A stretch of 35,462 nt of DNA from an uncultured Lamprocystis sp. GTDB lineage: Bacteria > Pseudomonadota > Gammaproteobacteria > Chromatiales > Chromatiaceae. Shown here one piece after another: positions 3,822-35,462 of the stretch (positions within the stretch are counted from its first letter, which is position 1; each line of letters begins with the position of its first letter). Under the pieces are notes generated by a model. The model was given only the letters and a program-made list of their open reading frames with translations, was not told the origin of the DNA and did no database searches. The stretch covers positions 1-35,462 of the forward strand of contig NZ_CAIZIZ010000373.1 in assembly GCF_903933125.1 (NCBI RefSeq), read 5' to 3'. The translations under genes were made by a program, and so were the position numbers.

Positions 3822-4227
3822 AGTGATGTGTCGGAAATAAGTTAAATAACGAATACAATCGTTGTCGTAATCGGATAATCGTTCTTCATCTGTGACTTCT
3901 GTGGATCACACCGAGTGGCCGCTTTGGCCGGAACGGCGATCATGGCCCTCGCGGGGGCCTTGATCGTAATCCCGGCCGGCGGTATGCGTAGTCAGGGCTT
4001 CCAGCCCTGACGGTGTCAGGCCAGGATGGCCTGACTACGCACCCGGCGCGCCCAAATGGCCGGAATCTTGATCGAGGCCCTCGCGGGTGTCATCACCTCG
4101 ATTACGACAACGACCGAGACGCCAAAGGCGTTCTCTGATGGGCTTGCTTAACGCATGAGTGAACGGCTCATCGCGAACGACGACGCGTTCCTGAGCCGCC
4201 GCCGCGGACCCGCCGGCCCGAGGCCAC
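3822..4227. other. Intergenic region between ribD and ribE: AT-rich leader plus repeats
   Basis: About 3822-3900 is AT-rich compared with its surroundings and is the likely promoter region of ribE. It includes two direct AATCGTT motifs exactly 20 bases apart (3857-3863 and 3877-3883). The rest is a palindromic repeat cluster (3925-4087). I looked on the minus strand for an FMN riboswitch core and did not find one. No supported gene lies here. Confidence 0.5.
3925..4087. repeat. BIME-like cruciform repeat flanked by an imperfect direct repeat
   Basis: Outer arms TGCGTAGTCAGG (3985-3996) and CCTGACTACGCA (4030-4041) are perfect inverted copies. They enclose two further hairpins, TCAGGGCT-TCC-AGCCCTGA (3992-4010) and GTCAGGCCA-GGA-TGGCCTGAC (4015-4035), so the DNA can form either a long stem or a three-way cruciform. 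On both sides lie 31-base imperfect direct repeats (3925-3955 and 4057-4087), which share TGGCCGGAA at one end and GGCCCTCGCGGG at the other. The pattern is like REP/BIME elements. Confidence 0.7.
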
Positions 4228-23994: not shown

Positions 23995-25530
23995 GTGGCC
24001 GCCCAGCGTCGCCCGACCACCCGCCATCCCGGCGCCCTTAACTGGGGGCGCCGGCTGTTCGGCGTACTCGTCGCGGCTCTGGGCCTGGCGCACGCCGAGC
24101 CCTTGCCGGTCGCCATTGACAAGGCGCTGCGGCTCCAGCAGATCAACCAGGTCGATCTGAGCCTGTACCTGCGCGAGGTCACCCAGACGCAACCGCGGAT
24201 TGCGGTCAACGCGGACACTCCGCGCCAGCCCGCTTCCACCATCAAGCTCCTGACCAGCATCGCTGCCCTGGGCCGACTGGGACCCAACTTCCGCTGGCAA
24301 ACCCGCGCCTGGCTGGATGGTCCACTGGTGAACGGCCGGCTGGCCGGGAACCTGATCATTCAGGGCGGCGGCGACCCCAGCCTGCGCCTGGCCGACCTGT
24401 GGCGGTTCCTCCGGGCCTTGCGCGCCCAGGGTCTGCAAACGATCGGCGGCGACCTCATCATCGACAACAGCGCCTTCGACCCACCCGAGACTACCCGCGC
24501 GGCGTTCGACGGCAAGGGACAGTCCGGCTATAACGCCCTGCCGGTGGCCTTCAGCATTGATGAGCAACTGACCCAGGTCGAATTGCGGCTCGACCCCAAG
24601 TCCGCGGCGCTGAGCGCCTGGCTGGAGCCCCCGGTCGCTAACCTGGATATCCAGAATCAGTTGAAAGTGGTCAAAGCGCCCTGTCAGACCAAGCACCATC
24701 GGGTGCATGCCGCGCTGACCGGCGAGCACGCCCCAACCATCATGACACTGACCGGAACCTTCGCCTCCGAGTGCCAACGTGACAGTGTCGCGGGGCTCCT
24801 GCTGGACCCGGTACAGCAGGCGGGCCGTGCCGTTCTGGCCCTGTGGCAGGACCTGGGCGGGCGCCTGGAGGGCACACTGCGTGAGGGCGTCCGCCCCAAG
24901 GGTGCCACCCTGCTGCATGCGATCGAGTCACCGGAACTCCCCGTCGTCCTGCGTGATGTCAACAAATGGAGCAACAACCTGATCGCCCGCACCCTGTTCC
25001 TGACTATCGGCATGGAACGCTACGGCCGCCCGGCCACCTTGGAGAAAGGTCGAGACGCGATCAAAGAATGGCTGGACCAACAGGGTCTGGACTTCCCCGA
25101 ACTGGTGCTCGACAACGGCAGCGGCCTGTCACGGTCGGACCGCATCGCGGCACAGAGCATGGGGCGGCTCCTCGCCTGGGCCTACACCCATCCCGGCATG
25201 GCGGAACTGATGGCCTCCCTGCCCATCCTGGGCGTGGACGGCACCCTGCACCGCCGCTTCAAGCGCGAGCCCCTACGCGCCCAGGGCCACCTCAAGACCG
25301 GCACCACCCGGGGCGTCACGGCGCTGGCCGGATTCCTCGACGACGCCCGCGGCCGGCGCTGGGTGTTGGTCTCGTTGATCAACAACCCGCGCCTGGCCAC
25401 CTGGCGCGGCAAGGCGGTGGAAGACGCCATCCTGCGCTGGGTCTATGACGAAACCGGCGGCGAACGGCGCGGCGCCGGGGGCTCGGGTCCAGCCGGCAAG
25501 GCGGCGAAGCTGTCGGAGCGCGGTGATTGA
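23995..25530 (+). CDS. dacB: D-alanyl-D-alanine carboxypeptidase/endopeptidase (PBP4, DacB)
   Basis: Periplasmic penicillin-binding protein of the S13 family that trims and cleaves peptidoglycan cross-links. The 511-residue product starts at GTG 23995 and has a signal segment (RRLFGVLVAALGLAHA, about 19-34). The catalytic motifs are SxxK at Ser81-Lys84 (PASTIKLLTS), SxN (KWSNNLIAR, about 325) and KTG (HLKTGTTRG, about 437). A large inserted domain lies between the first two motifs, as in PBP4. It begins 9 bases after rne and may be co-transcribed with it. The C-terminal tail (GERRGAGGSGPAGKA) looks disordered. Confidence 0.94.
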   Translation: MAAQRRPTTRHPGALNWGRRLFGVLVAALGLAHAEPLPVAIDKALRLQQINQVDLSLYLREVTQTQPRIAVNADTPRQPASTIKLLTSIAALGRLGPNFRWQTRAWLDGPLVNGRLAGNLIIQGGGDPSLRLADLWRFLRALRAQGLQTIGGDLIIDNSAFDPPETTRAAFDGKGQSGYNALPVAFSIDEQLTQVELRLDPKSAALSAWLEPPVANLDIQNQLKVVKAPCQTKHHRVHAALTGEHAPTIMTLTGTFASECQRDSVAGLLLDPVQQAGRAVLALWQDLGGRLEGTLREGVRPKGATLLHAIESPELPVVLRDVNKWSNNLIARTLFLTIGMERYGRPATLEKGRDAIKEWLDQQGLDFPELVLDNGSGLSRSDRIAAQSMGRLLAWAYTHPGMAELMASLPILGVDGTLHRRFKREPLRAQGHLKTGTTRGVTALAGFLDDARGRRWVLVSLINNPRLATWRGKAVEDAILRWVYDETGGERRGAGGSGPAGKAAKLSERGD

Positions 25531-25649
25531 TCGCGGCGACGATGTGGCGGAGTGGACCACACCTCGATTCGCAAGACTTTGCAAGCGCCCGTCGAAGAAC
25601 GGCAGGGCCGCTTAGGGCTTACATCCGAAAGAGCCTCGATCGGCCTAAC

Positions 25650-26024
25650 TTAAGACAAAACAGACGCCGGAATCGACCGCAAGAACTCCACCAACCGCGA
25701 GCGGCACCCCGGCGGAAGTCGGGATAAGACAGCGAGCAGTTCCCGTTCCTCCCTGTTCAGTATCACAGGAGCCGGGATGTATCGCTCGGGCCGCTCGTCC
25801 ACCCCCGCGGGATCGTAGTCTCTAACCCCTCGCCCGGTTGCCAGCCACTCAAAGCGGACCGCCAGCACACCTGCCGCGCGCGCCAAGTTCTCCACGCTGG
25901 GCGTTGTTTTCCCTTGCTCCCAATGACCGCACGCACCGCGGGTTACGCCGACCTCGGCGGCCAACTCCGCCTGGGACAAAGCCCGGTGCTCGCGAGCTTC
26001 CCGGATACGTGCAGCAATTGACAT
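25650..26024 (-). CDS. XRE-family HTH transcriptional regulator
   Basis: The 124-residue protein has an N-terminal Cro/C1-type HTH (about 5-60: ARIREAREHRALSQAELA, VGVTRGACGHWEQGKTTPS) followed by a short C-terminal region that lacks the LexA-type Ser/Lys protease residues. The start at 26024 is the only good ATG; three palindromic sites lie just upstream, the nearest only 10 bases from the ATG, so autoregulation is likely. The gene is divergent from the Ter cluster and the operator region is shared, so it is the best candidate regulator of that cluster. It is convergent with dacB. Confidence 0.87.
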   Translation of the reverse strand: MSIAARIREAREHRALSQAELAAEVGVTRGACGHWEQGKTTPSVENLARAAGVLAVRFEWLATGRGVRDYDPAGVDERPERYIPAPVILNREERELLAVLSRLPPGCRSRLVEFLRSIPASVLS

Positions 26025-26033
26025 GCCTCACAG

Positions 26034-26097
26034 GATAGTATTGCTATCCCTCAGCGAAAACGATAGTATTAGCATCACTTCTTGGAGATACCGTATC
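26034..26097. promoter_or_regulatory. Three operator-like palindromes upstream of the XRE gene
   Basis: Sites: GATAGTATTGCTATC (26034-26048), GATAGTATTAGCATC (26062-26076) and GATACCGTATC (26087-26097). The first two are near-identical 15-mers 28 bases apart with GATAG/CTATC half-sites; the third is a perfect shorter palindrome. The nearest overlaps a TACTAT hexamer on the minus strand that could be the -10 of the XRE gene. This is the layout of a Cro/C1-type operator set, inferred from sequence. Confidence 0.7.
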
Positions 26098-26262
26098 TAT
26101 CCTCCGCTTAGCCTTGGGTCGTAGCTTCCGGGTTGGCTGCGCGCGGCCATCCTTACCGAAGGACTAAGCCCTAGATAAACGGCAAGCCGTTGCCCCGCCG
26201 CCGCGATAGGGATCGAAGAGAAACAATCAGTCTGGGTCAAAGGAACAAGTAAGGATGATCCC
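26098..26262. promoter_or_regulatory. Upstream region of the Ter cluster
   Basis: The region has no gene. It contains a perfect 6-bp stem palindrome AACGGC-AA-GCCGTT (26178-26191) and the strong ribosome-binding site AAGGA (8 bases before the ATG at 26263). No clear sigma-70 promoter is visible to me. Confidence 0.4.
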
Positions 26263-27303
26263 ATGAAAGATTTCCGTCTCTCGATCGTTGTTACTCTGGC
26301 GTGCCTGGCGGTTGCGGGCTACTGGGGTGCTCAATCGGGCCAGGGAGCGGTTCCGGCGATCTTCCTCGCCTTCATCCTGGGTGTCATGGAAGTGAGCCTC
26401 TCCTTCGATAATGCCGTAGTGAATGCTAGCGTCCTCAAGGACATGGAAGAAAAATGGCAGCGAATCTTCCTCACTATCGGCATTCTCATTGCCGTCTTCG
26501 GGATGAGACTCCTCTTCCCCATTTTGATCGTCACCGTCGCCACCGGCCTCGGCATGGGTGAGGTCGCCACGATGGCTCTTGACCGCCCCGAAGAATATGC
26601 CCGCCACCTACAGGAAAGCCACGTCGGCATCGCCGCCTTCGGAGGCGTGTTTTTGATGCTCGTTTTCCTCTCTTTTCTCTTCGACGAGAGTAAAGAACTC
26701 CACTGGCTGGGAACAATCGAAGAGCGCCTGTCCAGACTCGGAAAGCTCGGCTCTATTGAAGTCATGGCCGCGCTCCTGATCCTCTTTGTCCTGCAATACG
26801 TCCTCCCCCTTGAACCCTTGGAGCGCCTCACGATGCTGGTTGCCGGTGTCGGCGGCGTCATCCTTTATATCGCCGTCAGCAGCGTCGGCAGTCTGTTCGA
26901 AAACGACGAGGACGGAAACGCTGCCGTGACCGCCGCCAAACGCAACGGCGTAGCCGGCTTTCTTTACCTTGAAATTTTGGACGCATCGTTCTCGTTCGAC
27001 GGCGTGATCGGCGCATTCGCCATCACCCGTGACGTCATCATCATCATGCTCGGGTTGGCGATCGGTGCCATGTTCGTTCGCTCCCTCACAGTCCACCTGG
27101 TCCGTAAAGGCACGCTCGATGAGTACGTCTACCTTGAACATGGCGCCCATTACGCCATTGGCGTACTCGCCGGCATCATGTTAGCCGGGATCGTTTACCA
27201 CGTCTCCGAAGTGGTCACCGGACTGATTGGTATTGGATTTATCCTGCTCGCTCTGGTCTCATCGGTACGTCACCGAGCGAAGACGCTGATTGCGGAAAAC
27301 TAA
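26263..27303 (+). CDS. DUF475/TerC-like integral membrane protein
   Basis: The 346-residue polytopic membrane protein resembles the DUF475 branch of the TerC family, with about eight hydrophobic segments. Two acidic intramembrane motifs, SLSFDNAVVN (Asp49/Asn50) and SFSFDGVIGAF (about 244), are the family's likely metal-coordinating sites. A cytoplasmic loop (about 105-145) is charged. TerC-family proteins are linked to tellurite resistance and Mn export; which applies here is not known. It is the first gene of the cluster, with AAGGA 8 bases before the ATG, and lies 54 bases before the first TerD gene. A membrane anchor for soluble TerD/TerY complexes is inferred. Confidence 0.9.
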   Translation: MKDFRLSIVVTLACLAVAGYWGAQSGQGAVPAIFLAFILGVMEVSLSFDNAVVNASVLKDMEEKWQRIFLTIGILIAVFGMRLLFPILIVTVATGLGMGEVATMALDRPEEYARHLQESHVGIAAFGGVFLMLVFLSFLFDESKELHWLGTIEERLSRLGKLGSIEVMAALLILFVLQYVLPLEPLERLTMLVAGVGGVILYIAVSSVGSLFENDEDGNAAVTAAKRNGVAGFLYLEILDASFSFDGVIGAFAITRDVIIIMLGLAIGAMFVRSLTVHLVRKGTLDEYVYLEHGAHYAIGVLAGIMLAGIVYHVSEVVTGLIGIGFILLALVSSVRHRAKTLIAEN

Positions 27304-27357
27304 TTTCTTTCCTAACCCCTATCATTAAACCGACATCCGATCGAACTGGAGGAACGC

Positions 27358-27936
27358 ATGGCGGTAACGCTCAAGAAGGGAGGCAATCTCTCCCTTTCCA
27401 CGACCAGCCCCAACCTAAAAACCATCCTGGTCGGACTCGGCTGGTCCGCCCGCGGCACCGATGGCGACGATTTCGATCTCGACGCAAGCGTCTTTATGGT
27501 AACCGACAGCGGCAAAGTGCGCCGAGATGAGGACTTCATCTTCTACGGCCAATTACTTTCCGTCTGTGGATCAGTCAAGCACACCGGTGACAACCGAACC
27601 GGCGAAGGCGACGGTGACGACGAGGCCATTGAGATCATCCTTGCCAAGGTTCCCGACGTCATCAAGCGCCTGATCGTCACGGTAACCATTTATGACGCAG
27701 AAGTCCGTCGCCAGAACTTCGGCCAAGTCTCCGACGCTTTCATCCGCATCGTCAATCACGAAAATCACGAGGAAATCGCCCGCTTCGACCTCTCCGAAGA
27801 CTACAGCACCGAAACCGCGATGATCTTCGGCGAGATCTACCGCCACGGTGGCGAGTGGAAATTCAAGGCTGTTGGTCAGGGCTACTGCGGAGGAACGGAG
27901 GCCCTGTGCCGACAGTTTGGCGTCAACATCGCCTGA
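27358..27936 (+). CDS. TerD-family protein 1
   Basis: TerD/TerE/TerZ-type stress protein of 192 residues, the usual length. The start [14 protein letters not shown] has GGAGG 6 bases upstream. The acidic calcium-binding motifs are intact: [12 protein letters not shown] (about 36-48) and [18 protein letters not shown] (about 76-93). The central [26 protein letters not shown] and [32 protein letters not shown] blocks are typical. TerD proteins bind calcium and are part of tellurite/stress resistance clusters. It is followed 39 bases later by a TerY gene, and this pair is repeated further on. Confidence 0.95.
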
Positions 27937-27975
27937 CAATCAACTGAAAACAACCAACCCGACACGAGGCATCCC

Positions 27976-28617
27976 ATGTCACGCAGACTTCCGGTCTATC
28001 TGGTACTCGACACCTCCGGCTCTATGTCTGGCGAACCCATCGAGGCGGTCAAGGTCGGCGTCGAGACCTTGGTCTCCTCCCTCCGCCGCGACCCTTACGC
28101 GCTGGAAACAGCCTGGCTCTCCGTGATCACCTTCGACAGCACCGCCAAGCAAATCGTCTCTCTTACCGAACTGGCCGCCTTCCAAAATCCCTCCATCATT
28201 GCCAACGGCAATACGTCAATGGGGGCGGGGCTATCGCTGCTGGCCAAACGTATTGAAGCCGAGGTAACCAAGACCACCGCCACCGAAAAAGGGGATTGGA
28301 AGCCTTTGGTGTTCCTTATGACCGACGGAGGTCCGACGGACAATTGGCAAACCGGACTCAACGATCTAAGGAAGGTGAAAACTGGAATTCTTGTCGCCTG
28401 TGCTGCTGGGCCGGGTGCCGATACCACCATCCTCAAACAGATCACCGAGGCGGTCGTTCATCTCGATACGGCAGATTCCACCACCATTAGCGCATTTTTT
28501 AAGTGGGTCTCCTCGTCCATATCGGTCGGAAGTCAGAAAGTCGAATCTGGTCAAAAAGAAGTTGCCGGCCTGGGCGAACTTCCTCCCCCGCCCCCCGAAG
28601 TCAGCTTTGTGGTGTAA
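27976..28617 (+). CDS. TerY-type VWA domain protein 1
   Basis: The 213-residue protein is a single von Willebrand factor A domain with a complete MIDAS metal site: DTSGS (Asp12, Ser14, Ser16), NTSMG (about 75) and MTDGGPTD (about 115). It starts at 27976 with GAGG 8 bases upstream. The C-terminal tail is GLGELPPPPPEVSFVV, a polyproline plus hydrophobic end shared with the second TerY. TerY proteins are partners of the TerD family. It is 39 bases after TerD 1 and 37 bases before TerD 2. Confidence 0.93.
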   Translation: MSRRLPVYLVLDTSGSMSGEPIEAVKVGVETLVSSLRRDPYALETAWLSVITFDSTAKQIVSLTELAAFQNPSIIANGNTSMGAGLSLLAKRIEAEVTKTTATEKGDWKPLVFLMTDGGPTDNWQTGLNDLRKVKTGILVACAAGPGADTTILKQITEAVVHLDTADSTTISAFFKWVSSSISVGSQKVESGQKEVAGLGELPPPPPEVSFVV

Positions 28618-28654
28618 GTTAATCGCTTCGACTCGATCGTCTGGAGATATACGC

Positions 28655-29308
28655 ATGGCCGTCACCCTAAAAAAAGGACAAGGCGTCAGCCTAAAAAAAG
28701 CCGAAAACGATCTCTCGCAGGTTACCATCGGCCTTGGCTGGGACATCGCCGAACGAAAATCCGGAGGAATTCTCGGCGGTATTTTTGGCAAGAAGCAACC
28801 GGAGAACGAGGAATACGACCTTGATGTAGTCGCGTTCCTTTGCGGAGCGAACGGAAAAGTCAACGATATCGGAACGCAAGAAGAAAACCGCGGCCCAATC
28901 GGGGGCGACATCATTTTCTTCAACTCCATGCAGCACCCTACCGGCCAAGTTTGGCTGACTGGTGATAACTGCTCCGGCGCCGGTGAGGGAGACGATGAAC
29001 AGATCATCGCCAACCTCAACTCCCTTCCGGAGCGTTACCATCGAATTGTCTTTGTCGTACAAATCTATGACGGTATCCAGAAGCACCAAAGCTTCGGACA
29101 GGTGAAGAATGCATATATTCGCGCCGTAGACGCGAAGAACCGCGAGATGGCCCGCTTCGACCTCTCCGGCGATGCTTCCTACGCCAACTGCCGCTCAATG
29201 ATCTTCGCCGAACTGGAACGAGAAACCGCGGGGTGGAAACTAAGAGCGATCGGCACGCCCTTTGAGAAAGACTCTTTCGGATACATTCTAACACAGTATT
29301 ATCTATAG
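28655..29308 (+). CDS. TerD-family protein 2, with a loop insertion
   Basis: The start at 28655 ([19 protein letters not shown]) is chosen over the longer frame because it matches TerD 1 and has GGAGA 8 bases upstream. The 217-residue protein keeps the acidic motifs EYDLDVVAFL and TGDNCSGAGEGDDEQI, and the block RFDLSGDASYANCRSMIFAELERETAGWKLRAIG. Compared with TerD 1 it has an insertion of about 16 residues after GLGWDIAE that reads RKSGGILGGIFGKKQPE, rich in glycine and hydrophobic residues. It ends GYILTQYYL. It may form a hetero-complex with TerD 1, by analogy with other Ter proteins. Confidence 0.93.
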   Translation: MAVTLKKGQGVSLKKAENDLSQVTIGLGWDIAERKSGGILGGIFGKKQPENEEYDLDVVAFLCGANGKVNDIGTQEENRGPIGGDIIFFNSMQHPTGQVWLTGDNCSGAGEGDDEQIIANLNSLPERYHRIVFVVQIYDGIQKHQSFGQVKNAYIRAVDAKNREMARFDLSGDASYANCRSMIFAELERETAGWKLRAIGTPFEKDSFGYILTQYYL

Positions 29309-29379
29309 TCGAACTCGGCCGACCGACCGAACACCTCAAAACCGATCGCAAATTAGAAAATCAACCCAGAGATCGCTCG

Positions 29380-30015
29380 ATGAGACGGCTACCGGTATAC
29401 CTGTTACTCGACACTTCAGGCTCAATGCGGGGCGAACCAATTCACTCTGTGAACGTTGGCTTGAGTGCGATGATTACTGCATTACGGCAAGACCCCTATG
29501 CCCTCGAAACGGTCTACCTCTCTATCATCACTTTCGACATCGAAGCCAAAGAACTTCTACCCCTCACTCCGATTGCGGACGTAACCCTACCTGATATCCA
29601 AGTTCCAGACTCCGGGCCCACGTTTCTCGGGGCCGCGCTTGATCTGTTGGTGCAGCGCGTCGATCGCGATGTGATCCGTAGCACCGCGGAGCAAAAAGGA
29701 GACTGGCGTCCACTCCTGTTCGTGATGACCGATGGCAGTCCATCGGACCTTCAACGCTACCGTGAAATGATCCCAGAGGTAAAGGTTCGCAACTTCGGGC
29801 ACGTCGTCGCTTGTGCCGCTGGACCCAAAGCAAAATTGCCTCCACTGGCGGAGTTGACTGACACCGTCGTGACTCTGGATACCAGCGATAGTTCAACTTT
29901 CACGTCATTTTTTCGATGGGTTTCCGCCAGCGTCGCCTTTGGGAGCAGTAGCGCGGGCGTTACGACGCCAGTAGGCCTCCCGCCACCGCCAGACGAAATT
30001 CAAGTGGTTATCTAA
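29380..30015 (+). CDS. TerY-type VWA domain protein 2
   Basis: The 211-residue VWA protein is clearly paralogous to TerY 1: MRRLPVYLLLDTSGSMRG with MIDAS Asp11, Ser13 and Ser15, then FVMTDGSPSD in the middle, and the same length. It ends GLPPPPDEIQVVI, the same proline-rich plus hydrophobic tail. It follows TerD 2 by 71 bases, so the TerD-TerY pair is duplicated in tandem. The Shine-Dalgarno (AGAG) is weaker than for the other cluster genes. Confidence 0.92.
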   Translation: MRRLPVYLLLDTSGSMRGEPIHSVNVGLSAMITALRQDPYALETVYLSIITFDIEAKELLPLTPIADVTLPDIQVPDSGPTFLGAALDLLVQRVDRDVIRSTAEQKGDWRPLLFVMTDGSPSDLQRYREMIPEVKVRNFGHVVACAAGPKAKLPPLAELTDTVVTLDTSDSSTFTSFFRWVSASVAFGSSSAGVTTPVGLPPPPDEIQVVI

Positions 30016-30130
30016 CGTCACGTTTCGTGATGAATCGCGCTTCCTTGAACAGAAGAAACGTACCCGGCAATCTCGACGTATTATTTAACAACATCTACCG
30101 GCTCAACGGTCTCCCACATCCGGAGAACAC

Positions 30131-31186
30131 ATGCGTCGCCTTCCCATTTTCTTCCTCCTTGATGTTTCCGAATCGATGGCAGGTGCCAACCTACTCAAGA
30201 TGGAAGAAGCCCTTGGGCGGATTGTTACGTCGCTGCGCCGCGATCCACATGCGTTGGAAACGGTTTTCATCTCGGTGATCGCGTTCGCGGGAGTCGCCCG
30301 CACTCTCGCACCCCTTACGGACCTGGGTGCCTTCTATGCCCCCAAATTACCCATCGGTAGCGGCACCAGTCTTGGGGCTGTCCTGCGCCACTTGATGTCC
30401 GAACTGGACCAGGTCGTCCTCAAGAACACCGCGGACCAGAAAGGCGATTGGCGCCCCATCATCTACCTGTTGACCGATGGCAAGCCAACCGATGACGCGC
30501 AGCCGGCGATCGACGAATGGAATATTCGTTATAAGAGACGGGCTGACCTGATCGCTATTGGCCTCGGTCGCTTCGCCGATCTTCATGTGTTAGCGCGGAT
30601 CACCGACCATGTGCTTGTCTTCGAGGGCACGAGTGACGACGACTATTGTCGTTTCATCCATTGGATAACCGCATCAGTCACCGTGCAGAGTCGAAGTGTC
30701 GGGGCCGCAGAAAGCGATGGAGTCCGCCTCGCAAAGATCGACGACACCATCCTTAAAACGCTTGATAGCGACTCGCGGTTAAGACATTACGATAACGACT
30801 GTGTCGTACTCATCGGGAGATGCCAAAGAAACCGCGCCCCATATCTGATGAAATATGATCGGGAATCGAGCGCGCTTTCGACAAACGAATTTTCTTTCGA
30901 ACTAACCCAATATTTATTGAGCGGCTGCTATCCAGTCGACGAATCATTCTTTGCTTGGTCGGACCCAACCGGAACGGTGGAAACCGTGAATACATTGGCA
31001 CTCCGAGGAATACCAAGTTGCCCATATTGCGGTAATCCATCCGCTTTCGCACGCTGCGCTTGCGGAAACCTGCTTTGTATCAGCGGGCCGGGGCATACGG
31101 TCTGCCCTTGGTGCGGCGACTCGATTGAGTTCATAGCGTCGACAAACGATGGCGACGGCTTTGACGTCTGTAGAGGAAAGGGGTAA
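30131..31186 (+). CDS. TerY-type VWA protein 3 with C-terminal zinc ribbon
   Basis: The 351-residue protein has an N-terminal VWA domain (about 1-200) with a slightly altered MIDAS, DVSES (Asp11, Ser13, Ser15). A middle region (about 210-285) and a C-terminal zinc ribbon (about 298-335) with CPYC, CAC and CPWC pairs follow. This is the TerY-C architecture. The start at 30131 has GGAGA about 5 bases upstream. Only 3 bases separate it from the PP2C gene, and the kinase follows, so these three form the TerY-P triad, of which E. coli YegL, PphC and YegI are counterparts. It lacks the PPPP tail of TerY 1 and 2. Confidence 0.9.
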   Translation: MRRLPIFFLLDVSESMAGANLLKMEEALGRIVTSLRRDPHALETVFISVIAFAGVARTLAPLTDLGAFYAPKLPIGSGTSLGAVLRHLMSELDQVVLKNTADQKGDWRPIIYLLTDGKPTDDAQPAIDEWNIRYKRRADLIAIGLGRFADLHVLARITDHVLVFEGTSDDDYCRFIHWITASVTVQSRSVGAAESDGVRLAKIDDTILKTLDSDSRLRHYDNDCVVLIGRCQRNRAPYLMKYDRESSALSTNEFSFELTQYLLSGCYPVDESFFAWSDPTGTVETVNTLALRGIPSCPYCGNPSAFARCACGNLLCISGPGHTVCPWCGDSIEFIASTNDGDGFDVCRGKG

Positions 31187-31189
31187 TAG

Positions 31190-32812
31190 ATGAAACATGA
31201 ATCAGATCACCGCGCAAGACTAGCGAAAGAGCTATTGGAAAATCTCTTTCGCTATCACCCTTCGCATGGGGTCTTTGCCGAACGGTCACAGGAAGTGACC
31301 AAGGCGCAGTTTGATTGCTTCCTAGCTCAACCAGAACTTATCGATCTAGCCGATAGTTTCTTGTCCAACATCAGCCGCGCCTGGCGAAAACAGTTCCCTT
31401 CAGCAGATGAAGGAGAAGTTGATTCCTCAATGCAAGAAACCCTGATTATCGTTCCGCCGTCCGGCGATCAGCCGGCGCCGCTTACCCAAAGCTCCGGACC
31501 TCTCGACATCGGGACCGTTCTCAAAGATGCAGTAATGACAACCCACGAAATTGCGGAAACGTTCGGCATCGGCGCTGAACTGATCATCAAGTCACGCCCC
31601 AGAGTCGCTCCAGTGAGTACCGCAGATCAACCAACAACGCCTCGCAAGGTCGTCTTCTCCACCGAACGCAACGCAAGCGTCGGGAAGGAGTATCACACAT
31701 TCATCCGGGCGACCCCGGAGGTAGACATTATCGCTGTTGTCGTTCCAGATGGTATTGGTGTTTCGTTCGATCCCGAAACGAAGGAACTTTCCGGAACGCC
31801 GACGACGCCCGGAGAGCATCTCTTGAAGATTCAGTATCGCCATAGCGCGTCGTGGCACGCCAGCGAGCGTCCATCGTTGGAAGGTTGCTGCATCTTGGTG
31901 GCCAATCCCGATCCCCAGTCGCTTTGGCTGAACAGAGCGTCAGCCCAAGATGACCCCGACTGGAAGCCGGATGAGGCCAGTATTCTTTTGAAAGCGACCG
32001 GTACCTTGCAGATGGTTGCCGCGAGCAAACGAGGGCGTTCCCACGCCCATGTCGGCTCCTTTCGAGACGACGACTTCGCCGTCGCGTCTTTCGAGGGCTG
32101 GAATATTCTTGCGGTCGCTGACGGAGCGGGCAGCGCAAAATACTCACGTATCGGTTCGCGATTGGCGGTCAGTACCGCGGTAGCGACGATGAAGGAGAAG
32201 GTAATCGGCGATCAGGGAGATGAGCTCAGCGACGCACCAGCGACGATGAGTCAGAATCCAGTCGCCGGCAACATCCCGGCGTACCATATTCTCGGAGCGG
32301 CCGCATTTTCTGCGATGAAGGCGATCGAATTGGAAGCTGCCGCTAAAGGCAACGCGATTAAGGACTACTCGACAACTTTGATTCTCGCGTTACATAAATC
32401 CACTTCATTCGGCGAGTTGATCGCGACGTTCTGGGTCGGGGATGGGGCCGTAGCCGTTTATTCGCGGGAAACGAGACTTCTAAAGATTCTCGGGGAGGGG
32501 GATTCAGGTGATTACGCCGGTCAAACCCGCTTTCTTGATACAGCGCTGGTATCGGATAGCAGGGAAATTTCCAAACGGATTAGGGTTGAGCTTTTACCCC
32601 GTTTTGATACGCTGGCACTCATGACTGATGGCGTGACTGATCCCAAGTTCGAGACCGATCATAATCTGGCGTCGATTCATTTTTGGGACCAACTTTGGGA
32701 CGAGCTAACGCCGGTCTTAAAGGATGATCAGCCGGAGCAGTGCTTGCTATCATGGCTCGATTTCTGGAGCCCCGGCAATCATGATGATCGCACCATCGCG
32801 TTGTTATGGTAG
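31190..32812 (+). CDS. PP2C-type Ser/Thr phosphatase of the TerY-P triad, with internal Ig-like domain
   Basis: The 540-residue protein has three parts. Residues about 1-70 are helical (ARLAKELLENLFRYHP). About 150-220 read RKVVFSTERN to GVSFDPETKELSGTPTTPGEH, like a putative Ig-fold (He_PIG-type) domain. About 275-540 are a PP2C phosphatase: HVGSFRDDDFAV, AVADGAGSAKYS (metal Asp311), LALMTDGVTDPKF and NHDDRTIALLW at the end. The acidic metal residues are present, so activity is expected. It probably reverses phosphorylation by the next gene's kinase, as PphC does for YegI in E. coli; that is inference by analogy. It starts 3 bases after TerY 3. Confidence 0.9.
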   Translation: MKHESDHRARLAKELLENLFRYHPSHGVFAERSQEVTKAQFDCFLAQPELIDLADSFLSNISRAWRKQFPSADEGEVDSSMQETLIIVPPSGDQPAPLTQSSGPLDIGTVLKDAVMTTHEIAETFGIGAELIIKSRPRVAPVSTADQPTTPRKVVFSTERNASVGKEYHTFIRATPEVDIIAVVVPDGIGVSFDPETKELSGTPTTPGEHLLKIQYRHSASWHASERPSLEGCCILVANPDPQSLWLNRASAQDDPDWKPDEASILLKATGTLQMVAASKRGRSHAHVGSFRDDDFAVASFEGWNILAVADGAGSAKYSRIGSRLAVSTAVATMKEKVIGDQGDELSDAPATMSQNPVAGNIPAYHILGAAAFSAMKAIELEAAAKGNAIKDYSTTLILALHKSTSFGELIATFWVGDGAVAVYSRETRLLKILGEGDSGDYAGQTRFLDTALVSDSREISKRIRVELLPRFDTLALMTDGVTDPKFETDHNLASIHFWDQLWDELTPVLKDDQPEQCLLSWLDFWSPGNHDDRTIALLW

Positions 32813-32820
32813 CGGTTAAA

Positions 32821-34392
32821 ATGGCAAATATTGTTAAACTTAAAGCGCTGGACGGTCGCACGGTCGAGTTTGTTGACACCATCATTGGTCAAGGGGCCAT
32901 GAAGGATGTTTATTGCAGTCCAGACAAGTCCTATGTAGTCGCTTTTTTCCGTACCAAACAGAATGCGCAATCGCGCGACCGATTAAGCAACATCGTTGGC
33001 ACCTACCGTGAGAAGCTTTTCAATCAGCAAGGCGGCGATTATTGGAAGAACCTGTTTTGCTGGCCTGATAGCATAGTTGAATGGAACGGACTTTTGGGCA
33101 TCGTTATGCCGGCATATCAGGGCCATTATTTCTTTCAACACGGCTCGAAAAACGGCGATAACTTCGGTATCAAGGGCAACGAAAAGGAAGGAAAATGGTT
33201 TGCCAGTGCCAAGAACAGAAGCCGCTATCTGGATCCGCGGGAACTCGGTTCTTGGCAAAGCTATCTTACCATCGGCATCAAGATTGCAAGGGCGGTCAAA
33301 CGGCTACACGCTGCCGGGCTTGCGCACTCCGATCTATCTTACAAGAACGTGCTGGTCGATCCAGTCGGAAGCAACGCTTGCATCATTGATATCGACACGT
33401 TGGTCGTTCCTCAGAGATATCCTCCAGACGTCGTGGGCACGCCGGACTTCATTGCTCCAGAAGTGGTGATGACCAATCATCTGAACAAAGAGGACCCGAA
33501 GCGTCATCTGCCGAGTATTGCGACGGATCGTCACGCGCTGTCTGTGTTAATCTATATGTACCTTCTCTACAGACATCCGTTGCGAGGTGACAAGGTTCAT
33601 GATGTCAGCGATACCCAAAGAGATGAGACACTCTCTATGGGAGAGCGCGCATTATTTGTCGAGCACCCGACTGACGACTCGAATCGAATCCGAGTCAAGC
33701 ACCTTGAGGCTAGCGAGCTTCCTTGGAAAGATACCAAGAAGGTGCCCTACACTATCACTGGTCCTTACCTAGTCCCGCTATTTAACCGTGCATTTATAGA
33801 GGGCCTGCACGATCCGGCGAAACGCCCCAGTGCTGACGAATGGGAACAGGCGCTTGTCAAGACCGTCGACTTATTACAGCCGTGCCAAAACGCCGATTGC
33901 GAGCAGAAATGGTACGTTTTCGATAACTCGATCGCTCCCAAGTGTCCCTTCTGCGGCACATCATACCAAGGAAGACTACCAGTCTTGAATCTTTATTCGG
34001 CACGAAAGCAAGGCAGCTATATTCCAGACAACCATCGCTTAATGGTCTATACCAATCAATCGCTGTTCCCCTGGCACATCAACCGCAACATTTTTCCTAA
34101 CGAACGGTTAGCCCCTAAAGATCAGAAAAGAGGAGGATATTTTGTATTCCATAAAGATTCCTGGTGGTTGGTGAACGAGCGCATGCCGGACCTTGCGGAT
34201 ATGACCGCTGGCTCTCCCATTAAATGCCCGCCGGGCGGTAAGGTAGAATTAAAAGATAATCAAAAGCTTCTCCTATCAAAAGAAGAAGGGGGACGCGTGG
34301 TTGTTGTCCAAATGGTGGCGGGCGCAAGTGGACAACCATCGCTGATTGGAAACATACAAAGCGGTCTTCAGAAAATGCTTCATCGCACCTGA
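32821..34392 (+). CDS. YegI-like Ser/Thr kinase with zinc ribbon and C-terminal beta-rich domain
   Basis: The 523-residue protein starts at 32821 (MANIVKLKAL) or at ATG 32806, which overlaps the PP2C stop by 7 bases; neither has a clear Shine-Dalgarno. A kinase domain (about 12-350) has the Gly loop IGQGAMKDVY, catalytic loop HSDLSYKN (His169, Asp171, Asn176), the DFG-equivalent DID (Asp190) and APE (about 212). The beta-3 strand reads YVVAFF, with no Lys at the usual place (Lys46 is nearest). A zinc ribbon (Cys355, Cys360, Cys375, Cys378) follows, then a beta-rich tail possibly like a degenerate FHA fold. It is the kinase of the TerY-P triad. Confidence 0.9.
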   Translation: MANIVKLKALDGRTVEFVDTIIGQGAMKDVYCSPDKSYVVAFFRTKQNAQSRDRLSNIVGTYREKLFNQQGGDYWKNLFCWPDSIVEWNGLLGIVMPAYQGHYFFQHGSKNGDNFGIKGNEKEGKWFASAKNRSRYLDPRELGSWQSYLTIGIKIARAVKRLHAAGLAHSDLSYKNVLVDPVGSNACIIDIDTLVVPQRYPPDVVGTPDFIAPEVVMTNHLNKEDPKRHLPSIATDRHALSVLIYMYLLYRHPLRGDKVHDVSDTQRDETLSMGERALFVEHPTDDSNRIRVKHLEASELPWKDTKKVPYTITGPYLVPLFNRAFIEGLHDPAKRPSADEWEQALVKTVDLLQPCQNADCEQKWYVFDNSIAPKCPFCGTSYQGRLPVLNLYSARKQGSYIPDNHRLMVYTNQSLFPWHINRNIFPNERLAPKDQKRGGYFVFHKDSWWLVNERMPDLADMTAGSPIKCPPGGKVELKDNQKLLLSKEEGGRVVVVQMVAGASGQPSLIGNIQSGLQKMLHRT

Positions 34393-34529
34393 CAAGCGTA
34401 CAGTAGATCGACTTCCGCATTGTCACCTAACGCGTTTGGTTAGTGAGTTTATCGGTGCTTCTGTTGACGTCTAGAACAGATCCAGTAGCACAGATACCGC
34501 CAACCGGCACATATCCTAAAAGGAACTAA
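34393..34529. other. Spacer between the kinase and the membrane protein gene
   Basis: The 137-base spacer has no gene. CTAAC-GCGTTTG-GTTAG (around 34427) is a weak inverted repeat without a T-run. AAGGA (34519-34523) is a good ribosome-binding site for the next gene. Confidence 0.35.
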
Positions 34530-35462
34530 ATGATGGCTTCCATGTTAAACAAGTTTTTCGGAAGAGTGTCTCGAAAGTCTCTCTATTTCGGTATATTTGG
34601 AATGATCGGAGCGGCTATCGGAAGCGCTCTAGGACAACTTCCTTTTCTATTAGTCGAGCACCAGGGGATTGTACTTTCCGACAACATTATCGAGACTCAG
34701 CAGAGGGTTCAGCAAGCCGGAGGCAAGAGTGGACTAGTTCAGATTTCGCTGATGTGGAACAACCGCAATGACTTGGATCTCTATGTAACCGATCCGACGG
34801 GAGAGATAATATATTTTTCCCACAAGAAGGCTGGCTCCGGGGGTGAACTTGATGTTGATCGGAATGTTGGCGGAGAAACCGAAACCCCTGTAGAGAATGT
34901 CGTATGGACGAATAGTCCTCCCGACGGGGACTATCAGGTGCATGTCCGGTTTTTCGCCAAAAAGAATGGCGCCGAACTCGCGACACCTTTTCTGGTTGTA
35001 GTAAAGAATAGCGACCGGATCGATGAATTCCATGGCACTGTCACGGCACCGAATGATAAGCCGTTAGTGACGACTTTTCGATACTCTGGGGTGGCTGCGG
35101 ATAACCATGTAGTCGATGGCAGCTGGATTGTTTCCTTTTGGGGCCTTTGTGTTGCCATGGGCATGGCCTTGTTGCTCGTAATCGGTCAACGCAAGTTTCT
35201 GCGCCAGCCATTGTTTCCACTAAAGGAGTTGGCACTGACCGCGGGTGGCGGGGCGATCGCGGGATTGGTGTCAGGCTGGTTAGCCAACTACGCTTTCGTA
35301 CTGTTACTTCCAAGATTTCTTGCCTGGGTAGTCTTTGGCTTACTAATAGGACTCGTATTGACAAGAGTCGTTCCGAACTTGAAACCTAAGGTTGGATTAG
35401 TTGGCGGCTCCCTGGGAGGTTTGGTGGGCGGCATATCATTTTCTTTCATAACGATAATTTAC
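34530..35462 (+). CDS. Membrane protein with YfaP/DUF2135-like domain, glycine-zipper helices; open at window end
   Basis: I translated this frame by hand; it is open from ATG 34530 to the window edge (311 codons so far). One hydrophobic Gly-rich segment (about 18-42: YFGIFGMIGAAIGSALGQL) precedes a soluble domain (about 68-160). That domain has ISLMWNNRNDLDLYVTDP, SHKKAGSGGELDVDRNVGGE and PDGDYQVHVRFF, which resemble the DUF2135/YfaP beta domain. Four further hydrophobic segments follow (about 200-220, 234-258, 262-281, 288-311), with GxxxG-rich stretches such as GGSLGGLVGGI. The tail is missing from the window. AAGGA is 6 bases upstream. It follows the kinase by 137 bases and is a candidate membrane sensor or output of the triad. 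Confidence 0.82.
   Translation, partial: MMASMLNKFFGRVSRKSLYFGIFGMIGAAIGSALGQLPFLLVEHQGIVLSDNIIETQQRVQQAGGKSGLVQISLMWNNRNDLDLYVTDPTGEIIYFSHKKAGSGGELDVDRNVGGETETPVENVVWTNSPPDGDYQVHVRFFAKKNGAELATPFLVVVKNSDRIDEFHGTVTAPNDKPLVTTFRYSGVAADNHVVDGSWIVSFWGLCVAMGMALLLVIGQRKFLRQPLFPLKELALTAGGGAIAGLVSGWLANYAFVLLLPRFLAWVVFGLLIGLVLTRVVPNLKPKVGLVGGSLGGLVGGISFSFITIIY

What the first reader, a model, noticed from the sequence alone, without database searches (positions are those of the whole stretch)
26263..35462. Nine-gene Ter cluster with a complete TerY-P phospho-signalling triad and membrane partners
Seen: DUF475/TerC, TerD, TerY, TerD, TerY, TerY with zinc ribbon, PP2C, kinase and a DUF2135-like membrane protein, all on one strand with short gaps. 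Known: TerD, TerY and TerC families and the TerY-P triad (VWA, PP2C, kinase; E. coli YegL/PphC/YegI). Inferred: this exact composition, with paired TerD-TerY modules and a terminal YfaP-like membrane protein, forms a membrane-coupled system sensing metal or stress, or perhaps acting in defence. Its function is not established.
Basis: partly seen in the sequence, partly recalled or inferred. Interest (0 to 1): 0.82.

Follow-up and report, generated by a model that had tools for sequence, protein, structure and literature searches.

The report
Known Ter signalling cluster, rare extra
A purple sulfur bacterium has acquired a block of stress-signalling genes already well known from other bacteria, followed by a rare membrane-protein gene whose relatives mostly sit beside this kind of kinase and which may be a swappable sensor for it.

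Summary
In detail: nine genes on one strand at 26263-35462, domain calls confirmed. The first eight are not new together. DUF475-TerD-TerY-TerD-TerY-TerY_C-PP2C-kinase occurs in the same order on Caballeronia grimmiae plasmid p3, and the six-gene TerY-to-kinase core on an IncHI-type ter plasmid. The ninth gene is cut by the contig end. A unique exact 119-base overlap with contig C164 completes it to 426 aa: one TM helix, a DUF2135-like beta domain, about five TM helices, and a small C-terminal domain with only weak FHA/YscD resemblance. Its TM plus C-terminal part recurs directly downstream of TerY-P kinases in three other loci (no beta domain) and near VWA/FHA/PP2C genes on cyanobacterial plasmids (mostly with a VWA ectodomain). 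So it is a real but rare accessory. The cluster is an island of about 11 kb between an S13 peptidase and an MscS gene, which are neighbours in two of three testable congeners. Best reading: a variant of the known Ter/TerY-P stress phospho-signalling system. Function untested.

The parts
25544..26262 (.). left end of the acquired island; identity with congener G543 stops at about 25543; holds an HTH_3 gene 25650-26024 on the - strand
26263..27303 (+). DUF475 / TerC-family integral membrane protein (putative metal transporter), 346 aa
   Evidence: Pfam DUF475 1.1e-112, TerC 3.9e-20; 66% identical to Caballeronia p3
27358..27936 (+). TerD, 192 aa
   Evidence: Pfam TerD 9.7e-82
27976..28617 (+). 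TerY1, VWA domain, DxSxS metal site intact (DTSGS)
28655..29308 (+). second TerD, in the position of the plasmid TerX gene
   Evidence: Pfam TerD; order as; aligned with 14 homologs
29380..30015 (+). TerY2, VWA domain, DTSGS
30131..31186 (+). TerY3: VWA (DVSES, the SES conserved in the family) plus TerY_C metal-binding domain
   Evidence: Pfam TerY_C 1e-48
31190..32812 (+). PP2C phosphatase with long N-terminal extension; DGAGS, GDG, TDG and HDDRT motifs conserved
   Evidence: Pfam PP2C_2 1.1e-42
32821..34392 (+). atypical protein kinase with C-terminal zinc-ribbon cysteines (the ORF can start at 32806)
   Evidence: Pfam Pkinase 1.2e-9; H174, D176, N181, D197 in 39 of 39 rows
34530..35462 (+). 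5' part of the ninth gene: membrane protein, 311 of 426 aa; continues in contig C164 (start of L112)
   Evidence: hydropathy
34689..35090 (+). DUF2135/YfaP-like beta domain of the ninth protein, predicted periplasmic
   Evidence: A2 alignment; AlphaFold2 pLDDT 89, all beta after a short helix; DUF2135 hit in 4 of 8 aligned sequences, not the window's
35344..35462 (+). exact 119-base overlap with the start of contig C164

Best explanation
This is a horizontally acquired ter/TerY-P stress-signalling island. Shown: gene content and order, intact catalytic and metal-site motifs, an insertion relative to congeners, and recurrence of the ninth gene's membrane part beside TerY-P kinases. Inferred: the kinase and PP2C set the phosphorylation of partners among the VWA proteins TerY1-3 and the TerD proteins. 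The metal sites of TerY, TerY_C and the kinase zinc ribbon make the switch metal-dependent. DUF475 moves a divalent metal at the membrane. The ninth protein ties the switch to the membrane: its swappable periplasmic domain receives an envelope signal and its small cytoplasmic domain meets the kinase or phosphatase. The output would be tolerance to metal, oxidative or envelope stress, perhaps including phage attack.
For: Eight-gene order identical on Caballeronia p3; core block on an IncHI-type ter plasmid and a Polaromonas plasmid. MIDAS, PP2C and kinase residues conserved in alignments with 20 to 38 homologs. Insertion: the S13 and MscS genes lie 2.6 kb apart in G543 and under 3 kb apart in G547, and the segment C164:1135-1451 follows the S13 gene directly in G542. 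GC3 drops from 0.81-0.84 to 0.52-0.73; the kinase branches apart from its congeners' kinases. Membrane-part gene directly downstream of the kinase in G578, Azospirillum ramasamyi and G022. In Klebsiella, terC affects Te, Zn and Mn resistance and phage plaques, and the ter operon is Zn-induced (PMC12054061, passages).
Against: No experiment on any gene here. A relative of the ninth gene is absent from 23 of 24 family kinase loci with downstream sequence; one relative (G403) is unlinked. Relatives of its beta domain fetched (7 loci) have no other cluster gene near them. The gap before it is the longest in the cluster (137 bases). The FHA idea is weak: PF16697 below cut-off, no profile match to canonical FHA, usual phosphothreonine-binding residues missing. 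No TerD beyond these two in the genome, so the larger ter machinery may be missing. In congener G545 MscS was not found in the 15 kb after the S13 gene, so the site is not conserved everywhere. The window kinase is a long branch whose place the tree program calls unsure.
Confidence: 0.5

Rival explanations
1. The cluster is mainly an anti-phage defence system of TerY-P type; metal sensing is secondary.
For: TerY-P-like modules are reported as stand-alone anti-phage systems (PMC11090510 and PMC7699616, passages); it is an inserted island; terC affects phage plaques in Klebsiella (passages).
Against: In PADLOC none of the ten sequences given matched, except the kinase weakly to other defence kinases; whether PADLOC holds a TerY-P model was not checked. 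The tested systems are said to have an OB-fold on the kinase; this one has zinc-ribbon cysteines there. None of the ten genes read in the island (nine plus the HTH gene) is a nuclease.
Confidence: 0.2
2. Eight genes form the system; the ninth gene is an unrelated passenger at the island's end.
For: Of 39 kinase loci, 36 lack a relative of it (one of these, L078, has no downstream sequence); of the 37 not fetched by means of it, 1 has it (L052). Longest gap (137 bases).
Against: Four of five strong proteobacterial members (window, L052, L123, L133; exception L114) sit directly downstream of a TerY-P kinase on the same strand, on three kinase branches. In the three cyanobacterial plasmid loci read (L121, L122, L124) the family sits near VWA, FHA and PP2C genes.
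Confidence: 0.2
3. The island is a decaying or silent remnant that does nothing in this host.
For: GC far from that of its surroundings; no sigma-70-like site on the + strand in 25500-35462.
Against: All nine frames are open and catalytic motifs are intact; the promoter scan covers one promoter type only.
Confidence: 0.1

Closest known systems
terY/terX block with PP2C and kinase on IncHI-type ter plasmids (one read: E. coli pECO-109b; 'terY-CYXYW' in PMC12054061, passages)
   Same: same six-gene order TerY-TerD(TerX)-TerY-TerY_C-PP2C-kinase; kinase 64-66% identical in the 40 plasmid rows listed
   Different: that plasmid also carries terZ, further TerD genes, terB, terC and the ATP-grasp/PRTase/StiP/HpcH genes; here DUF475 and one TerD precede the block and a membrane gene follows it
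Caballeronia grimmiae plasmid p3 cluster (NZ_CP084276.1)
   Same: all eight genes DUF475 to kinase in the same order and strand
   Different: followed by HAD-IB and DUF805 genes instead of the ninth gene
TerY-P triad (VWA, PP2C, kinase)
   Same: all three components with intact motifs; kinase with zinc-ribbon cysteines
   Different: the anti-phage examples named in PMC11090510 (passages) have an OB-fold kinase; here three TerY and two TerD genes are present
Membrane-part family of unnamed proteins (Azospirillum WP_162630026.1, Gloeothece WP_013334915.1 and the VWA protein WP_245602838.1)
   Same: multi-TM region plus small C-terminal domain; beside TerY-P genes, or near VWA/FHA/PP2C genes
   Different: this member has a DUF2135-like ectodomain; the others have a VWA ectodomain or none

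Membership tests
TerY-P triad | TerY-like VWA protein with DxSxS site | tested here: met
   three VWA proteins; motif conserved
TerY-P triad | PP2C phosphatase with catalytic Asp motifs | tested here: met
   PP2C_2 1.1e-42; motifs at 90% or more among 38 homologs; which Asp are catalytic is recalled
TerY-P triad | Ser/Thr-type kinase with C-terminal zinc ribbon | tested here: met
   Pkinase 1.2e-9; catalytic residues 39 of 39 rows; two Cys pairs conserved (read by eye, no zinc-ribbon model hit)
TerY-P anti-phage type (OB-fold kinase) | match to defence models; OB-fold on the kinase | tested here: inconclusive
   no TerY-P hit in PADLOC, but it was not checked that PADLOC holds such a model; kinase structure prediction failed
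IncHI-type ter system | TerY-TerX-TerY-TerY_C-PP2C-kinase order | tested here: met
IncHI-type ter system | further TerD paralogs in the genome | tested here: not met
   only the two TerD of the cluster in the genome
IncHI-type ter system | TerB, TerW and the biosynthetic genes | not tested
   not searched in the genome; none lies in the island as read
YfaP / DUF2135 | DUF2135 Pfam match | tested here: inconclusive
   no match for the window domain, 4 of 8 aligned sequences match, best 7.5e-6; no DUF2135 match in own genome
FHA domain | profile match and canonical phosphothreonine-binding residues | tested here: not met
   only PF16697 at 0.0047, below cut-off; hhalign to three FHA proteins, probability 0.6; residues absent (canonical motif recalled)
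E. coli YegL/PphC/YegI | direct sequence relation to these three proteins | not tested

The most novel reading that the evidence does not exclude
The ninth gene belongs to an undescribed family of bacterial membrane transducers: a constant multi-TM region and small cytoplasmic domain, with an exchangeable ectodomain (VWA, DUF2135-like or none), that plugs into VWA/PP2C/kinase switches in Proteobacteria and, in parallel, Cyanobacteria. It would be the missing membrane receptor of some TerY-P systems.
Probability: 0.35. Interest if true: 0.6.

Novelty: new variant of a known kind. Interest (0 to 1): 0.38.

Why it matters
What ter clusters sense and how TerY-P kinases are switched is an open question. 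A membrane protein that recurs next to these kinases with different outer domains gives a concrete candidate for the input, testable by phosphorylation and pull-down assays. The rest of the cluster is ordinary for ter systems.

Tried and rejected
Considered and dropped: (a) 'new nine-gene system': eight genes are already found together. (b) FHA reader of kinase marks: not supported by profile comparison or residues. (c) A WNK-like moved catalytic lysine in the kinase: K33 in the glycine loop is invariant where covered (38 of 38 rows) but a K/R follows the usual lysine position in 37 of 38; the single-sequence kinase model was useless (pLDDT 32), so undecided. (d) Phage carriage: the one scan of viral contigs, which reaches close relatives only, found no relative of the kinase; the phage record collection was not searched. 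(e) Fold search of the beta domain: no PDB match at E 0.001 or better. (f) Promoters and terminators: 2 promoter-like sites (6.0 expected from shuffles) and 14 terminator-like sites (11.4 expected). (g) Papers: the listings show no title on this composition or on the ninth protein; the library is partial, and the main TerY-P paper (Anantharaman 2012) was not read.

Rows dropped: L079, L084 and L085 had no kinase ORF over 450 bits and were left out of the 39 loci; the window is not among the 39. Five family loci with under 5 kb upstream (L053, L057, L059, L064, L073) were left out of the counts of 25; L078 has no downstream sequence. Counts were made by hand; L054 prints in another order because its open frames overlap and was counted as the full order from its coordinates.

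Full report
WHAT IS THERE. Pfam supports DUF475/TerC, two TerD, three VWA (the third with TerY_C), PP2C_2 and Pkinase. Motifs are intact: DxSxS in all three TerY proteins (aligned with 20, 32 and 30 homologs), DGAGS/GDG/TDG/HDDRT in PP2C (38 homologs), and H174, D176, N181 and D197 of the kinase in 39 of 39 aligned rows. The second TerD starts at 28655.

THE HOST. The window is a whole contig (C373) of a 7.1 Mb genome in 589 contigs. A congener, G547, has a first contig of 6,837,296 bases, the size printed for the chromosome of 'Thiodictyon syntrophicum' Cad16T (PMC5944118, passages). So the genus is most likely Thiodictyon, a purple sulfur bacterium (inferred).

THE NINTH GENE GOES ON. It runs off the contig end. 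The last 119 bases of the window occur at one other place in the genome, the first 119 bases of contig C164, and the frame continues to 426 aa. Hydropathy suggests one N-terminal TM helix, a soluble stretch of about 150 residues, four clear TM peaks (a fifth helix is likely but below threshold), then a soluble C-terminus. The stretch 34689-35090 is modelled as an all-beta domain after a short helix (pLDDT 89). It has no PDB match at E 0.001 or better; 4 of the 8 sequences aligned there match DUF2135, the window's own does not. The C-terminal domain has a sub-threshold match to Yop-YscD_cpl (2 of 7 aligned proteins at 0.1) and no match to canonical FHA proteins or PDB sequences.

AN INSERTED ISLAND. 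In G543, which has no kinase match, the S13 peptidase gene and the MscS gene are 2.6 kb apart; in G547 they are under 3 kb apart. In G542 the contig ends near the S13 gene, which is followed at once by the segment found at C164:1135-1451 (97.8% identical). Against this, in G545 no MscS was found in the 15 kb after the S13 gene. In our genome S13 ends at 25530, identity with G543 stops at about 25543, and MscS starts at C164:1890. So about 11 kb is inserted, and the gene order independently supports joining C373 to C164. GC3 falls from 0.81-0.84 to 0.52-0.73 across the cluster and is 0.84 again in MscS. The kinase stands alone, apart from the TerY-P kinases of its congeners G544-G547, though it is a long branch whose exact place is unsure.

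THE FIRST EIGHT GENES ARE KNOWN TOGETHER. Caballeronia grimmiae p3 carries all eight in the same order. Polaromonas pPNAP04 and an IncHI-type E. coli plasmid carry the six-gene core. Of 72,556 plasmid records, 2344 match the kinase, 2190 of them over at least 80% of it. In the family, 50 of 210 genomes gave any match to the kinase, 28 of them (own included) over nearly the whole length. Of 25 family loci with at least 5 kb upstream, 22 have TerY, 18 TerD, 8 the full TerD-TerY-TerD-TerY-TerY_C-PP2C-kinase order, 2 DUF475 on the same strand, and 1 (of 24 with downstream sequence) the ninth gene's relative (counted by hand). TerY_C was found in 7 of 398 genomes of the phylum, own included, 5 over cut-off. 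Of six DUF475 plasmid neighbourhoods read, three had TerD close by and one the triad; in Polaromonas DUF475 lies about 9 kb from the kinase.

THE NINTH GENE IS A RARE BUT PROBABLY REAL COMPANION. Searching with its TM plus C-terminal part (A1) gave 3 of 398 phylum genomes: own, G022, and a weak G384 hit with no Ter genes near it. In the family it gave 3 of 210: own, G403 and G578. G022 and G578, plus Azospirillum ramasamyi, have it directly downstream of a TerY-P kinase on the same strand; G403 has it in a chemotaxis region. None of these four is long enough for the beta domain. Relatives of the beta domain itself turn up in most of the 19 of 210 family genomes matched by the window part of the protein, own included, and in 7 other loci in which no other cluster gene was found. 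In Gloeothece, Tolypothrix and Trichormus plasmids the membrane-part family has mostly a VWA ectodomain and lies near VWA, FHA-protein and PP2C genes, and in the first two also kinase genes. So a constant membrane and tail part carries different outer domains and mostly keeps company with VWA/PP2C/kinase switches. It is rare: plasmid searches with three members hit 7, 1 and 6 records.

HOW IT PROBABLY WORKS. Inferred: kinase and PP2C oppose each other on TerY/TerD partners; metal-binding domains make this metal-dependent; DUF475 acts on metal at the membrane; the ninth protein couples an envelope signal to the switch. Support from a relative: in Klebsiella, terC affects Te, Zn and Mn resistance and phage plaques, and the operon is Zn-induced (PMC12054061, passages). 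TerY-P triads are described as hypothesised metal-sensing phospho-switches, and OB-fold versions as anti-phage systems (PMC11090510, passages). No PADLOC TerY-P hit was seen (presence of such a model not checked), so defence stays a rival.

VERDICT. What is worth following is the ninth gene's family.

Noticed in passing
window 32821-34392 (kinase residues 28-49): Invariant Lys in the glycine-rich loop (38 of 38 rows that cover it) while the usual VAIK lysine position is F/Y, followed by K/R in 37 of 38: either a WNK-like moved lysine or a one-residue shift.
   Followed up: partly
window 3955-4079 and L112:1514-1638: A 125-base repeat, 93.6% identical, with an inverted self-match inside, occurs in the window and just beyond the island's right end: perhaps a small palindromic repeat element.
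   Followed up: no
L052:17582-17794 (G578:C1:3038581-3038805): A second, fragmentary copy of the membrane protein's C-terminal part, with a stop inside the match, lies upstream of the same TerD-TerY-P cluster in G578.
   Followed up: no
L121, L122, L124 (cyanobacterial plasmids): Similar clusters of VWA, serine hydrolase, ARC6-like, membrane-part proteins, zinc-ribbon FHA protein and PP2C (kinases listed in L121 and L122): a signalling system that I did not look up further.
   Followed up: partly
L050, L066, L075: TerY-P-type kinase and PP2C with no TerY gene recognised nearby at the thresholds.
   Followed up: no
L112:467-1134: Short stretch right of the ninth gene, before the segment shared with G542, that may hold transposase remnants (read by eye, not tested).
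   Followed up: no
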